From Clostridioides sp. ES-S-0054-01 (GTDB lineage Bacteria > Bacillota > Clostridia > Peptostreptococcales > Peptostreptococcaceae), in contig CP067346.1 of NCBI GenBank assembly GCA_021561035.1, positions 3,503,001 through 3,567,000 on the forward strand: a DNA stretch of 64,000 nt, given 5' to 3'. Both the position numbers and the translations under genes were made by a program. Of this stretch, positions 8,375 through 19,285 are shown in pieces (the first letter of the stretch is position 1; the number at the start of each line of letters is the position of its first letter). Under the pieces are notes generated by a model. That model saw nothing but the letters and a program-made list of their open reading frames with translations, was not told the DNA's origin and searched no databases.

Positions 8375-8668
8375 ATAAAAAAGAGCCCTTCATCCTCTTT
8401 AAAAAGGACGAAAAGCTCGCGTTACCACCTTAATTCCAAAGCTTAAAAATACATTAACATATAGTTAAATTATCGGTTAATGTTATTTTATCAACTTTGA
8501 CTCTCAAAGAATTTAACGGTTCTAACCGTCTAAACTTACTAACAGTTCAGTTTAGAAACTCCAAAGCTACGTTCAGTAAACCTTGTACTTAGAAAATCTT
8601 ACAGCCAGTGAATTTTCCTCTCTTTTAGTAGTATTTACTTACTCCTCTTCTTCTCAGTCTTTAATATT
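8375..8668 (-). promoter_or_regulatory. T-box leader (tRNA-Val-sensing) of valS
   Basis: The minus strand carries the T-box core AAGGTGGTAACGCGAGC at about 8415-8432. Directly after it is a terminator: GAGCTTTTCGTCC pairs with GGATGAAGGGCTC over 13 bp (with G-U pairs) and is followed by six T. The 3' side of Stem I reads GAACGTAGCTTTGGAG, which places GTA, a valine codon followed by a purine, in the specifier position (8568-8570). Uncharged tRNA-Val should stabilise the antiterminator and switch valS on. The leader starts just below the promoter at 8676-8705. Confidence 0.93.
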
Positions 8669-14692: not shown

Positions 14693-15610
14693 TTAATTTA
14701 CCGCCTTATTTGAAAGTTTATTTAAAACTAAGTTTAAAATTAATATAAATGTAAACAATACTACTCCAGTTGCAAATAACATTTCTTGATGTGTACCAAA
14801 TGCGTATCCCATTTCAAGTGCTATATTAGTTGTAAGTGGTCTTACACTATCTGTTATTGCAGTTGGCATAACTGGTGAGTTTCCTGCGACAAGTATTACT
14901 GCCATTGTTTCACCTAAAGCTCTTCCTACTCCTAACACTACTGCAGCCAATACTCCAGATTTCGCAGCAGGTAATACAACTTTGAATATTGTTTCTATTT
15001 TTGATGCACCAAGTGCTAATGAACCTTCTTTGTATGCTTTTGGTACTGCTCTTATTGCTGTTTCTGATACAGATATTATTGTCGGTAACATCATTACTGC
15101 TAGTACTATTACTATTGCCAACAAACTTTGACCTTTTGGAAGATTAAATATACTTTGTATCGTTGGAACTATCACTGCAAGACCAAATACACCATATAAT
15201 ACTGAAGGTATACCTGCTAAAAGTTCAACTGCTGGTGACATTATTTTTGCTAATCTTTTAGGTGCTACTTCTGCTATAAATACAGATGTTAATATACCAA
15301 TTGGTACTCCTATCACAAGTGCTCCAAGTGTTGCAAATATTGATGCTACTATCATAGATGATATTCCAAATTTATTAGCAGAAGGAACCCAATCTACACC
15401 AGTTAAAAAGTCTATAAATGAGTATCCCTCAAATATAAATGGTCTTAGCCCTTTATAAAATACGAATCCTATTATCAAAAGTAAACTTGCAACTGCTACT
15501 AAAGCACTAAGTAGAAAAATATTTTTTGCTACTTTTTCAATTACGTATTTTGTTTTATTGCCATTATTGTCATTTTTTTCTAAACCTACTAATCTAGATT
15601 TTACTATCAT
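14693..15610 (-). CDS. pstC: Phosphate ABC transporter permease PstC
   Basis: An inner-membrane permease subunit, 305 aa, with about six transmembrane segments after a charged cytoplasmic N-terminus. The coupling loop is KEGSLALGASKIETIFKVVLP. The longer N-terminus and the SFIDFLTGVDWVPSANKFGI extracellular stretch distinguish PstC from PstA. It is the first gene of the operon, with GGGAGG before the ATG, about 120 bp below a Pho-type promoter. Unlike the usual pstSCAB order, pstS is not next to it but about 2.8 kb upstream. Confidence 0.96.
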   Translation of the reverse strand: MIVKSRLVGLEKNDNNGNKTKYVIEKVAKNIFLLSALVAVASLLLIIGFVFYKGLRPFIFEGYSFIDFLTGVDWVPSANKFGISSMIVASIFATLGALVIGVPIGILTSVFIAEVAPKRLAKIMSPAVELLAGIPSVLYGVFGLAVIVPTIQSIFNLPKGQSLLAIVIVLAVMMLPTIISVSETAIRAVPKAYKEGSLALGASKIETIFKVVLPAAKSGVLAAVVLGVGRALGETMAVILVAGNSPVMPTAITDSVRPLTTNIALEMGYAFGTHQEMLFATGVVLFTFILILNLVLNKLSNKAVN

Positions 15611-15903: not shown

Positions 15904-16262
15904 AAGATTTGTTAACTAAATTTAACTTTTATACTACATATATAATTATTATCTATGTCACTATTATTTTCATCAAATTGTTATGATACTTGATATTTAC
16001 AATAGGTCAGAAAGGTTTAGCAACATAATATCTAAAATTACCAAATCAAATTCATCTAAGTTTCAAATGGAAACCTTAAAATAATAGCTTAAGTAAATAT
16101 CTTTTTAAACAATAAAACTGAATGTAAGTTAAACGTCAGTTAAACCCAGAAAAACAGGCTTTGACAGTTAAATTTCAGTCAGCTATTTTACAATAATTTC
16201 GTTTAAATATCGCTAAAGTTGCACATTTTTTATACTTATTAACGCTCATTAATATATGTTCA
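15904..16262. other. Spacer between the pst leader palindrome and the OmpR-type regulator
   Basis: No gene is seen. At 16128-16145 there is an exact 7-bp direct repeat, GTTAAAC, with copies 11 nt apart (GTTAAACGTCAGTTAAAC). It has the same orientation and spacing as the repeats at pstS and could be a further Pho box about 500 bp above pstC. Confidence 0.4.
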
Positions 16263-16943
16263 TTATTCCTTATTAAAATAATATCCTGCTCCTCTTATTG
16301 TTATAATCTTTTGAGGATTTTTATAATCTTTCTCTATTTTCTTTCTTAATCCATTCACTGCAACTACCACACTATAATTATCCTCTAAGTATTCATTCAT
16401 CCATACATGTTCATATATCTCTTTAGTAGTTAAAGTCTTTTCAGGATTCTCTATAAAAAAGTTTAATAACTTATTTTCTGTTGGAGTCAATTTTATTATT
16501 TTATCTTCTAACTTTATTACTCCACTAGTTCTATTATATTCCTCTAACTTTGTATTATTTTCATTATTATTTACATATAAATTCATTCTTCTTAAAATAG
16601 CTTTTACTTTTGCATATAATATTTCTAAATTTAAAGGCTTAATTAAATAATCGTCTCCACCAGAATTTAATGCATTTAAAATGCTTTGGTCTTCATTTAT
16701 GTAAGTCATATATACAATTGGACATGTAGTTACATTTCTAATTTTTTTACAAAGAGTCCATCCATCACCATCAGGTAAAATTATTTCTAAAAATATTAAA
16801 TCATATTTATTACTAAATATTTTTTCAATAGCTTCTTCACAATTATATGCTAAATCTATATTTATCCCTTTTCCTTCTAAAAAGTTTTTCAATTCCTGGC
16901 AATTATTTTTATCTTCATCTATTATCAATATCTTAGTTTGCAT
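16263..16943 (-). CDS. OmpR/PhoB-family response regulator with Glu at the phosphoacceptor site
   Basis: A DNA-binding regulator of 226 aa. The GTG at 16952 overlaps the AGGAG ribosome site, so the ATG at 16943 is preferred. The receiver domain (1-117) ends its third strand with LIFLEIILPDGDG: Glu53 stands where the phosphorylated Asp is expected. The other active-site residues (Asp9 and Lys102 in DYLIKP) remain. The winged-helix domain (about 130-225) is intact: LTPTENKLLNFF, KEIYEHVW and GAGYYF. Asp-to-Glu often mimics phosphorylation, so constant activity is possible. Its position between pstS and pstC suggests a phosphate role, but the family alone does not prove it is PhoP/PhoB. No intact kinase is adjacent. 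Confidence 0.85.
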   Translation of the reverse strand: MQTKILIIDEDKNNCQELKNFLEGKGINIDLAYNCEEAIEKIFSNKYDLIFLEIILPDGDGWTLCKKIRNVTTCPIVYMTYINEDQSILNALNSGGDDYLIKPLNLEILYAKVKAILRRMNLYVNNNENNTKLEEYNRTSGVIKLEDKIIKLTPTENKLLNFFIENPEKTLTTKEIYEHVWMNEYLEDNYSVVVAVNGLRKKIEKDYKNPQKIITIRGAGYYFNKE

Positions 16944-16992
16944 TATAATCACTCCTAAATATCATTATTCTTTTATATTAAATAACCCATTA

Positions 16993-17561
16993 TTATGAAA
17001 AACATAGATTTAGTTTTATTGTAAAAACAGTTCCTTTTCCTAACTCTGAATCTACAAAAATTTCTCCATCATGTTCTTTCACAATGGACTTTACAACATA
17101 TAACCCTAACCCTTGACCTGTTCAAATGTCAGCATCTCTTGATGTAAAGAATCGTTCAAATATCTTTGACATATTTTCTAATCTAAGACCAATCTCTCTA
17201 TCTTGTGATGTAAATTCTTGTAGACTATGTACTCTATTTTGTACCTCATTTGATTTTTGATTTATCGCAGATAGATAAGCTTTTGTCTCTTCATCTACAC
17301 GAATATTACCAACCTTATATTATATATTTTTATCTTCGAGAATACTGGTTCTTTGTTTTCAGCTAAAAATCACCAAATTTTTTCTTCTTCATGTTCATAA
17401 TTAGATAAAAACATTATAGATATGTTAACCTTTTCTTTTATATCATTGTACATTTCATATCCATCTATATCTGGCAATACAATATCCATAATTATACAAT
17501 CTAAAACTATGTTTTCTACTATATTTATAGAATCCTTTAGCAGTCTCTGATGTATATACAT
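16993..17561 (-). pseudogene. Decayed two-component remnant: receiver, winged-helix and kinase pieces
   Basis: Three pieces follow one another in transcription order. 17370-17561 still reads as a receiver fragment (LDCIIMDIVLPDIDGYEMY). About 17190-17350, with frame shifts and stops, recalls the linker and start of an OmpR winged helix (ENKEPVFSKIKIYN, then KVGNIRVDEETKAYL). 16993-17200 is the end of a histidine-kinase ATPase domain: LENMSKIFERFFTSRDADI, an in-frame TGA at 17119-17121, then GQGLGLYVVKSIVKEHDGEI to a natural stop. This looks like a regulator-kinase pair fused by deletion and then decayed. It lies just upstream of the intact regulator and probably is what is left of a sister system. 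Confidence 0.8.
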
Positions 17562-18109
17562 TACTCCACTCCATTCAAAAATATTTTAATCATAGTCTCA
17601 AGTTTTTATTATTACAAATTATAATGTTTTATTTTTATATAACTAGTATTATCATTTTATAATATTTTTACAAACTAGACTATAATACTTAAGTACTTTT
17701 GAATAATTCTTGAATATTATATTAAATATTAAGATTCATTATTAAATACTAATCAAAGTCTCCGATTGTTGGAAAATGGAGCTTAAAGTCGTTTTATCTT
17801 ATAAATCTATTGTTTTTCTAGAAACTTGTCCATTAGTGAGTTTGAGTATTGATTTATATGATTTATATGGTTATAATATAAAATAAATTGTATTATTTTG
17901 GTAAATATATTGTTACAAAAAGTTTACATTCTATATCCTAATGTTTATAAAAACGTTATTTTCTTATTATAATTGTATTATACTTTTTAAAAAATTTCCC
18001 TTTTCCAACAAATGGCTACTTTAAAATTCAAAATTTAACTTATTAATATAAATCTAACTACTAATACTATTATTTTCAAATTTCACAATATTCTTGTTAA
18101 TTTTAAAAC
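17562..18109. other. Empty stretch directly downstream of the c-di-GMP-II riboswitch
   Basis: I find no open frame with a ribosome site on the minus strand, where the riboswitch would direct transcription, and none on the plus strand. The composition is AT-rich with many stops. Whatever gene the riboswitch once controlled is missing or decayed beyond recognition. Confidence 0.55.
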
Positions 18110-18253
18110 AAAAAAGGCTATGCAATATAAAGATTATATTCATAGCCGGTTGCACCATTAACTCCATATATCTCTAGATGCCCAATAATAAGATATACTT
18201 CTCAGTTTCTAAAATATTTTTATTAAAAATCTTTAATATGTTTTAGTAAATTT
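18110..18253 (-). ncRNA. Cyclic-di-GMP-II riboswitch with terminator, no gene after it
   Basis: The minus strand carries the c-di-GMP-II aptamer landmarks in order. AGAAACTGAGAAGTAT (about 18195-18210) matches the GAAAC..GA.GA segment. ATTGGGCATCTAGAG and GGAGTTAATGGTGCAACCGGC match the family core ATTGGGCACTTGACT and GAGTTAGTAGTGCAACCGACC. The aptamer end overlaps the 5' arm of a terminator: GGCTATGAATATAA pairs with TTATATTGCATAGCC (one bulge), then six T. Ligand binding would hold the CCGGC segment and hinder the terminator, so an ON switch is likely. Transcription starts about 10 nt below the promoter at 18261-18289. The stalled transcript would be about 144 nt. Confidence 0.85.
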
Positions 18254-18260
18254 CCTTTTT

Positions 18261-18289
18261 ATTCTAACATTGTAATATTATTTTGTCAA
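18261..18289 (-). promoter_or_regulatory. Sigma-A promoter of the c-di-GMP-II riboswitch
   Basis: On the minus strand TTGACA (18284-18289) and TAGAAT (18261-18266) are 17 bp apart, a near-consensus housekeeping promoter. It lies below the pstS terminator, so the riboswitch is an independent unit. Confidence 0.85.
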
Positions 18290-18372
18290 TATTTCCATAT
18301 TCTTTAGGTATAACATACTAAAATATATATTATCTCTAAAAATATTTATATTTCTATATCCAAGAATAGACA

Positions 18373-18422
18373 ATACCCTGCAAGTTATAGCAACATTTTT
18401 ATGAGCTTACCTTGCAGGGTAC
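18373..18422. terminator. Terminator of pstS
   Basis: An 11-bp perfect stem, TACCCTGCAAG and its complement, with a 28-nt loop, about 30 bp after the pstS stop codon. Confidence 0.75.
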
Positions 18423-18451
18423 ATATATTTATTTTACATTAAATATTCATT

Positions 18452-19285
18452 TTATTGATTAACTTTAATAAATCCTTTCTCTGAAACAAGTGCTTGTCCT
18501 TCATCACTCAATATATAGTCTATTAAAGCTTTACCTTTTTCTGATAAACCATCTTCTTTATTAACTAGTATAAATGGTCTTGATATCGGATATTTGTTAG
18601 CTATTACATTTTCGTCAGTTGCTTCAACATCATTTACTTTTAAACTATTTACTTTCTCATCAACATATCCAAATGATATATATCCTATAGCATTTTCATT
18701 GCCTTCAACTGTAGTTTTTATATTTCCTGAACCATCACTTATTTGTGCATCTTTAGTTAATTCTTCTGACTCAAATCCTACAATTTCTTGGAATCCATCT
18801 CTAGTTCCTGAACCTTCTTCTCTTGATACTATTACTATTGGCGCATCCTTTCCTCCCACTTCTTTCCAGTTAGTTATCTTTCCTGTATATATACCTTTAA
18901 CTTGGTCCATTGTTAGATTTTTTACTGGGTTAGCAGTATTAGTTATCAATGCTATACCATCTATTGCTATCTTAGATTCCTTCAATCCAGCACTTTTTTC
19001 TTCATCTTTTAAATCTCTTGAGCTCATTCCTATTTCAGATGTTCCTTCTATGGCATTTTTTATACCTCCAGAAGAACCAATTTGTTGTACTTCTACACTA
19101 ACACCTTGATTTTTTCCCTGAAACTTTTCTGCGATAGTTTCCATAAGAGGACCTATTGAAGTTGAACCTGAAACAGAAACTTTACTTGAATCACCTGAAC
19201 CTCCTGAATTAGAACCACATCCTACTGCTAAAGCTCCAACTAGCATTGTACTAGCTAAAAGAACTCCTATTTTCTTTTTAAACAT
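18452..19285 (-). CDS. pstS: Phosphate ABC transporter substrate-binding lipoprotein
   Basis: An extracellular lipid-anchored phosphate receptor, 277 aa. The signal peptide ends in the lipobox LAVGC with Cys23 as the lipidated residue. Phosphate-binding segments are visible: VSGSTSIGPLMETIAEKF, SSRDLKDEEK and REEGSGTRDGFQEIVG. It hands phosphate to PstC/PstA. It is transcribed alone from a Pho-type promoter and ends in its own terminator, separate from pstCAB-phoU. That arrangement allows more receptor than permease to be made. Confidence 0.95.
   Translation of the reverse strand: MFKKKIGVLLASTMLVGALAVGCGSNSGGSGDSSKVSVSGSTSIGPLMETIAEKFQGKNQGVSVEVQQIGSSGGIKNAIEGTSEIGMSSRDLKDEEKSAGLKESKIAIDGIALITNTANPVKNLTMDQVKGIYTGKITNWKEVGGKDAPIVIVSREEGSGTRDGFQEIVGFESEELTKDAQISDGSGNIKTTVEGNENAIGYISFGYVDEKVNSLKVNDVEATDENVIANKYPISRPFILVNKEDGLSEKGKALIDYILSDEGQALVSEKGFIKVNQ

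What the first reader, a model, noticed from the sequence alone, without database searches (positions are those of the whole stretch)
18110..18289. c-di-GMP-II riboswitch with promoter and terminator but no downstream gene
The minus strand has near-consensus TTGACA-17-TAGAAT, then the core landmarks of a c-di-GMP-II aptamer (GAAAC segment, ATTGGGCA, GTGCAACCGGC), then a 14-bp terminator whose 5' arm overlaps the aptamer end. That is the layout of an ON switch. Yet the next about 550 bp hold no gene, and the first recognisable sequence is a decayed two-component remnant. Either the target was lost, or the short RNA itself, or a cryptic downstream RNA, is the product.
Basis: partly seen in the sequence, partly recalled or inferred. 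Interest (0 to 1): 0.8.

Follow-up and report, generated by a model that had tools for sequence, protein, structure and literature searches.

The report
Shrunken cmr switch locus, riboswitch kept
The RNA switch is the known c-di-GMP sensor in front of the cmrRST genes of Clostridioides; in this close relative of C. difficile the first two of those genes have decayed, so the switch now probably drives only the third, cmrT.

Summary
Rfam scores a c-di-GMP-II aptamer at 18135-18218(-), 69.5 bits against a cut-off of 53.5, with a near-consensus promoter and an overlapping 14-bp terminator. It is not an orphan of unknown kind: it is the orthologue of Cdi-2-2, the published riboswitch of the C. difficile operon cmrRST, at the same place (pstS - riboswitch - cmr - pstC). 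The predicted start falls where published TSS1 maps. The "empty" 550 bp is the normal long cmr leader with the invertible cmr switch (Cdi6), here apparently OFF. cmrR and cmrS have collapsed to fragments through several deletions, but cmrT (16952-16263) is open, about 1.17 kb after the terminator; its C. difficile homologue is thought to act without phosphorylation. cmrR is intact in 6 of 8 Clostridioides species genomes; this one and G003 lost it through different deletions. Most likely: a cut-down circuit in which c-di-GMP, plus the DNA switch, sets CmrT level with no kinase and no CmrR feedback. That read-through still reaches cmrT is inferred. The riboswitch is known; the cut-down locus is a modest new variant.

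The parts
18452..19285 (-). pstS, upstream neighbour
   Evidence: ORF 277 aa; found beside the riboswitch in the sister genomes
18261..18289 (-). promoter of the riboswitch (TTGACA-17-TAGAAT); predicted start 18254
   Evidence: published TSS1 (699 nt upstream of cmrR, PMC8844915) maps to 18254 through the G001 alignment; 29/29 identical to G001
18135..18218 (-). c-di-GMP-II aptamer, orthologue of Cdi-2-2
   Evidence: RF01786 69.5 bits; 83/84 identical to G001
18110..18147 (-). intrinsic terminator, 5' arm overlapping aptamer P1
   Evidence: sequence, RNA fold
17997..18022 (.). left inverted repeat of the cmr switch
   Evidence: one of 38 inverted pairs found there; arms across genomes
17755..18022 (.). 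cmr switch (Cdi6 invertible element) with both arms, apparently OFF orientation
   Evidence: 246/268 identical to G001; collinear with 5 unbroken sister loci, opposite in G003; identified by place, size and promoter distance, the R20291 sequence not being in hand
17849..17877 (+). likely ON promoter inside the switch (TTGATT-17-TATAAT), pointing away from cmrT in this assembly
   Evidence: in G001 the inverted site predicts a start at about 4333, against 4332 for published TSS2
17755..17780 (.). right inverted repeat of the cmr switch
17319..17561 (-). cmrR remnant; a 63-aa ORF (17561-17370) keeps part of the receiver domain
   Evidence: tblastn pieces and deletions against G001; Pfam Response_reg partial, 34.7 bits
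16999..17316 (-). cmrS remnant (two pieces of the kinase end, most of the gene deleted)
16263..16952 (-). cmrT, open response-regulator gene (MQTK start at 16943), E53 in place of the phospho-acceptor Asp
14693..15610 (-). pstC, downstream neighbour

Best explanation
This is the cmr locus of a Clostridioides species close to C. difficile. The riboswitch is Cdi-2-2. Low c-di-GMP: RNA polymerase from TSS1 stops at the terminator after about 145 nt. High c-di-GMP: stem P1 closes, the terminator cannot form, and transcription runs on through the leader, the OFF-oriented cmr switch and the dead cmrR/cmrS fragments (about 1.17 kb) into cmrT. A second input is inversion of the cmr switch, which would turn its internal promoter towards cmrT. 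CmrT keeps the Glu found at the phosphorylation site of C. difficile CmrT, a regulator inferred there to be constitutively active (the Glu alone does not fully account for that), so its amount would be the main thing controlled: a c-di-GMP-to-transcription wire without sensor kinase or CmrR positive feedback. Shown: identity, synteny, intact regulatory elements, broken cmrR and cmrS, open cmrT. Inferred: ligand response, read-through to cmrT, inversion and CmrT activity in this strain.
For: Rfam hit. Same gene order in the five other genomes whose loci are unbroken, and consistent pieces on two contigs in G002. Published: Cdi-2-2 lies 5' of the switch and raises cmrRST expression; c-di-GMP acts whatever the switch orientation (PMC6837544, PMC8844915). 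Promoter 29/29 and aptamer 83/84 identical to G001, while the spacer after the terminator is 73/87. Of the 13 ligand contacts listed for 3Q3Z (PMC7288161), 12 are kept by my own position mapping; the 13th has the family-consensus g. cmrT is open, pairwise dN/dS 0.083 with G001, and has 5 unique changes in 678 sites against 24 in 588 in the cmrR/cmrS remnants (Fisher p 8e-5). [quoted passage not shown] The terminator scan lists only one weak site between 18110 and cmrT.
Against: No expression data exist here. A long untranslated leader could be cut short by Rho. cmrT has 3 amino-acid changes private to this genome, and 4 of its 5 unique changes are at codon positions 1-2, against 7 of 32 in the other seven genomes pooled (p 0.02): constraint may be slackening. 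A weak terminator-like site lies in the cmrS remnant (17088-17065), and that scan missed the riboswitch's own bulged terminator, so it cannot exclude others. The aptamer has one private change next to a ligand contact (18158, A for G). A stands there in 1 of 21 other genus aptamers counted and in 5 of 31 from other genomes, but in all five of those together with a second change two bases on that the window lacks.
Confidence: 0.62

Rival explanations
1. The whole locus is on its way out: riboswitch and cmr switch are relics of a dead operon, and cmrT is no longer usefully driven by them.
For: cmrR and cmrS are dead; 3 private amino-acid changes in CmrT, one in the DGD motif (G10E), with slackened codon-position bias; one private aptamer change beside a ligand contact; 1.17 kb of mostly untranslated RNA before cmrT.
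Against: From promoter to terminator the window has 2 unique changes of 178 sites, against 1-3 in the five sister genomes with intact operons in that alignment; cmrT is open and has far fewer unique changes than the remnants.
Confidence: 0.28
2. The 145-nt terminated RNA, or a cryptic RNA in the 550-bp stretch, is the functional product.
For: A short terminated RNA is expected at low c-di-GMP; short forms (about 100, 160 and 200 nt) of another C. difficile c-di-GMP-II leader, Cdi2_4, were seen on Northern blots, though the authors read such bands as possible spliced or GTP-attacked forms (PMC3649979 passages).
Against: The same leader stands before intact cmrRST in sister genomes (five unbroken loci and the pieces in G002), so it is explained without a separate RNA; the only Rfam hits over threshold in the window are this aptamer and a T-box.
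Confidence: 0.06
3. The 63-aa ORF left from cmrR is a functional short protein.
For: It keeps a start codon and part of a receiver domain.
Against: Unique changes in the remnants of both genes fall 20 at codon positions 1-2 and 4 at position 3, unlike intact cmrR and cmrS (66 and 111, pooled from three of the six intact genomes; p 3e-5); G003 lost cmrR by different deletions.
Confidence: 0.02

Closest known systems
Cdi-2-2 riboswitch (c-di-GMP-II, RF01786) of C. difficile cmrRST
   Same: Orthologous position, promoter start, aptamer (83/84 with G001) and overlapping terminator
   Different: Its first two target genes are broken here; one aptamer base differs beside a ligand contact
cmr switch (Cdi6)
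   Same: Inverted repeats, element of about 268 bp, internal promoter that would face the genes only when inverted
   Different: No difference seen against sister genomes beyond point changes; inversion in this strain not shown, and the published R20291 sequence was not compared directly
CmrRST signal transduction system
   Same: cmrT intact with E53, D9, D11, T80 and K102
   Different: cmrR and cmrS decayed; CmrT has E10 instead of G10 and P57 instead of S/T57

Membership tests
c-di-GMP-II riboswitch (RF01786) | Covariance-model score above the gathering threshold | tested here: met
   69.5 against 53.5 bits, full length
c-di-GMP-II riboswitch (RF01786) | Nucleotides that contact the ligand | tested here: met
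   12 of the 13 listed for 3Q3Z, mapped by me through the consensus; the 13th is the family consensus g
c-di-GMP-II riboswitch (RF01786) | Expression platform that excludes P1 | tested here: met
   Terminator 5' arm is the P1 3' strand
c-di-GMP-II riboswitch (RF01786) | Binds c-di-GMP and controls a downstream gene | not testable with these tools
   Needs binding assay and RNA data
Cdi-2-2 / cmr leader | Between pstS and pstC in the sister genomes, upstream of cmr switch and cmr genes, start site as published TSS1 | tested here: met
cmr switch (Cdi6) | Inverted repeats flanking a segment with an ON promoter | tested here: met
   not compared with the R20291 sequence itself
cmr switch (Cdi6) | Inverts by site-specific recombination | tested here: inconclusive
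   G003, a draft whose contig ends at the switch, holds the opposite orientation; no read data for this strain; a candidate recombinase is present in 8 of 8 genomes, but its identity as RecV is recalled
CmrRST three-gene system | Intact cmrR and cmrS | tested here: not met
   Fragments only; best CmrR-like protein in the genome 39% identical
CmrRST three-gene system | Intact cmrT with E53 | tested here: met

The most novel reading that the evidence does not exclude
Reduction of cmr loci to CmrT alone happens repeatedly in Clostridioides: here, in G003, and in second cmr-like loci of G001, G002, G004 and G006 (where cmrR or cmrS fragments are seen) and perhaps G005, leaving phase-variable, or c-di-GMP-gated, expression of a phosphorylation-independent regulator as the selected unit. 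In such loci an RNA sensor and a DNA switch have taken over the sensing job of a two-component system.
Probability: 0.4. Interest if true: 0.5.

Novelty: new variant of a known kind. Interest (0 to 1): 0.36.

Why it matters
Published surveys of C. difficile report cmrRST and its leader as highly conserved (present in all 65 complete genomes examined in PMC6837544; high identity among 71 in PMC8844915). A sister species that keeps the riboswitch, the DNA switch and cmrT but has lost the kinase and the autoregulator is a natural test of the published suggestion that CmrT level alone may set the output. It also warns that a riboswitch with no adjacent gene may still have a target more than 1 kb away.

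Tried and rejected
Rejected: 'orphan riboswitch of unknown target' (synteny, published TSS1). Rejected: a 30-kb inversion in G003 that parts riboswitch and cmrT; the scaffold has a run of N exactly there, so the join proves nothing. Rejected: a shared deletion history for G000 and G003; the BLAST and tblastn pieces differ (the MAFFT gap placement gives both a gap at nearly the same place in cmrS, disagrees with BLAST, and I set it aside), and a tree of six neighbouring genes groups G003 with intact G001 (support 88; cmrT itself 92), so an early shared null mutation is unlikely but not excluded. Rejected: the aptamer change at 18158 as proof of decay. One search counted only the 31 distinct aptamers that fitted a text pattern in 25 of the loci of the order survey (109 of 297 genomes with a match); one search counted the 22, window included, that fitted an exact string in 30 genus loci; the rest were not counted. 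A phrase search for CmrT homologs, paralogs or pseudogenes gave 0 papers; a wider search found 17 papers and listed 15, of which I opened passages of 5. Papers: PMC8844915 abstract, outline and part of Results (parts 1-2 of 3, and section 10); PMC11477304, PMC3649979, PMC6143707, PMC8428550, PMC12140426, PMC6837544, PMC12548384, PMC12694794, PMC7288161 and PMC3764141 passages only (the last did not bear on it).

Full report
What is there. cmscan of the whole window gives two Rfam hits above threshold: a T-box at 8401-8664(-) and a c-di-GMP-II aptamer at 18135-18218(-), 69.5 bits, E 1.5e-13. The promoter TTGACA-17-TAGAAT (18289-18261) is the best of 29 promoter-like sites in 16200-18450, where shuffles give 21.5 on average. 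The terminator is visible in the sequence and folds as 14 pairs with one bulge; its 5' arm is the P1 3' strand. The fold energy of the whole leader RNA is not exceptional (z -1.44, 17 of 200 shuffles as good), and the terminator scan does not list this bulged stem.

Which locus it is. The window lies in G000, a 3.93-Mb single-contig genome; its genus has 8 held species genomes, G000 included. G001 is C. difficile in the strict sense or very near it: its CmrT receiver, compared by eye, reads the same as PDB 2qzj, which PMC12548384 names as the C. difficile CmrT receiver, over the stretch aligned there. In G001, G004, G005, G006 and G007 the order is pstS - riboswitch - switch - cmrR - cmrS - cmrT - pstC. 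G002 has the same parts on two contigs. Literature names this riboswitch Cdi-2-2, upstream of CD3267 = cmrR (PMC8428550, PMC11477304, PMC6837544). PMC8844915 maps TSS1 699 nt upstream of cmrR; carried from G001 to the window by alignment, that base is 18254, where the promoter scan puts the start.

The empty 550 bp. It holds what I take to be the cmr switch: arms 17997-18022 and 17755-17780, 81% complementary. That pair alone would not stand out among the 38 inverted pairs found in this AT-rich stretch; the identification rests on place, conservation, the opposite orientation in G003 and the promoter distances. I had no R20291 sequence to compare. A TTGATT-17-TATAAT site inside it points away from the genes in the window and in the five collinear sister loci, and towards them in G003. 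In G001 the inverted site predicts a start at about 4333, against 4332 for published TSS2 (336 nt upstream of cmrR). So the window assembly is in the OFF orientation and G003 in the ON orientation. A tyrosine recombinase of about 190 aa, 97-100% identical in 8 of 8 genomes, is a candidate for RecV; that name is recalled, not tested.

What is broken. Against G001 the window lacks about 70 bp at the cmrR start, about 200 bp inside cmrR, about 1.64 kb from late cmrR through most of cmrS, and about 256 bp inside the kinase part. An intact CmrR (92-100%) is found in 6 of 8 genomes; in G000 and G003 the best hit is a 39% relative. An intact CmrS (87-100% over 674-675 aa) is found in the same six. 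G003 keeps and lacks different pieces from G000, so at least part of the decay is independent. The distance from TSS1 to the cmrT start is 1311 nt here, against 3513 nt in G001 (coordinates). This is not the state of C. difficile clade 5, where cmrRST is reported to be expressed and to drive chaining (PMC12140426 passages).

What is kept. Promoter 29/29, aptamer 83/84 and switch 246/268 match G001. From promoter to terminator the window has 2 unique changes in 178 sites, within the 1-3 of the five genomes with intact operons in that alignment. By my mapping, 12 of 13 ligand contacts listed for 3Q3Z in PMC7288161 are kept. The one private aptamer base lies next to a contact; A is also found there in 1 of 21 other genus aptamers counted and in 5 of 31 from the order survey, these five with a second change two bases on that the window does not have. 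cmrT is open, with receiver and DNA-binding domains and E53, D9, D11, T80 and K102.

Selection. Pairwise dN/dS of cmrT is 0.083 with G001, against 0.054 for six neighbour genes in the same pair; cmrT pairs without G000 range from 0 to 0.076. Unique changes: cmrT 5 of 678 sites, remnants 24 of 588 (p 8e-5); in G003, 6 of 678 and 52 of 854 (p 2e-8). Against my reading: 4 of the 5 unique cmrT changes in G000 are at codon positions 1-2, against 7 of 32 pooled in the other seven genomes (p 0.02). Three residues are private to G000, among them G10E in the DGD motif studied in PMC12548384. That is a small sample and could mean slackening or adaptation. The conditioning sets differ (7 other genomes for cmrT, 6 intact ones for the remnants).

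Mechanism. [quoted passage not shown] Losing cmrR and cmrS therefore removes kinase input and positive feedback but can leave the output. That is my best explanation, with confidence 0.62; the identification of the locus itself is near certain. The main rival is that the locus is decaying as a whole (0.28).

Wider pattern. Five genomes (G001, G002, G004 with two copies, G005, G006) hold six further CmrT-like genes at 81-87% identity. Five of the six have a cmr-like leader with its own inverted repeats and the same internal promoter, none has a riboswitch hit, and four show tblastn fragments of cmrR and/or cmrS (L036, L037, L038, L039). L040 shows only DNA similarity to the leader and to short stretches near cmrT, and L041 only a short stretch at the cmrT start. 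In each of the five, the two repeat cores share the same variable base (G in two, A in three), as expected if inversion or conversion keeps them alike. All five are assembled in the same orientation, so inversion itself is not shown there. dN/dS among the six copies is 0.15-0.29, so they are constrained but less than cmrT. One phrase search found no paper on them.

Noticed in passing
L036, L037, L038, L039, L040, L041: Second cmr-like loci in five sister genomes, G001 (C. difficile-like) among them: CmrT-like gene at 81-87% identity, in five of six with an inverted-repeat leader, no riboswitch hit, and in four with cmrR or cmrS fragments.
   Followed up: partly
whole genome G000; L054, L085, L086: This genome has 3 c-di-GMP-II riboswitches where the other seven have 4; the missing one appears to be the pilA1 type (gene name recalled from L054's pilin ORF), and no close match to that pilin was found (best 55% over 61 aa).
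   Followed up: partly
window 16943-16263: CmrT here carries E10 (the other seven G) and P57 (the others S or T), two of the positions at which C. difficile CmrT departs from a standard receiver, while keeping E53.
   Followed up: partly
L071, near G003:C109:29990: A run of N in the G003 scaffold between a PrdC-like gene (name recalled) and the riboswitch makes the two halves of the cmr locus look 28 kb apart; probably a scaffolding join.
   Followed up: yes
window 8401-8664: T-box leader on the minus strand, 111.4 bits.
   Followed up: no
G000:C1:1133358-1133921: Tyrosine recombinase of about 190 aa, 97-100% identical in 8 of 8 genomes, candidate for the RecV that flips the cmr switch (name recalled).
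   Followed up: partly
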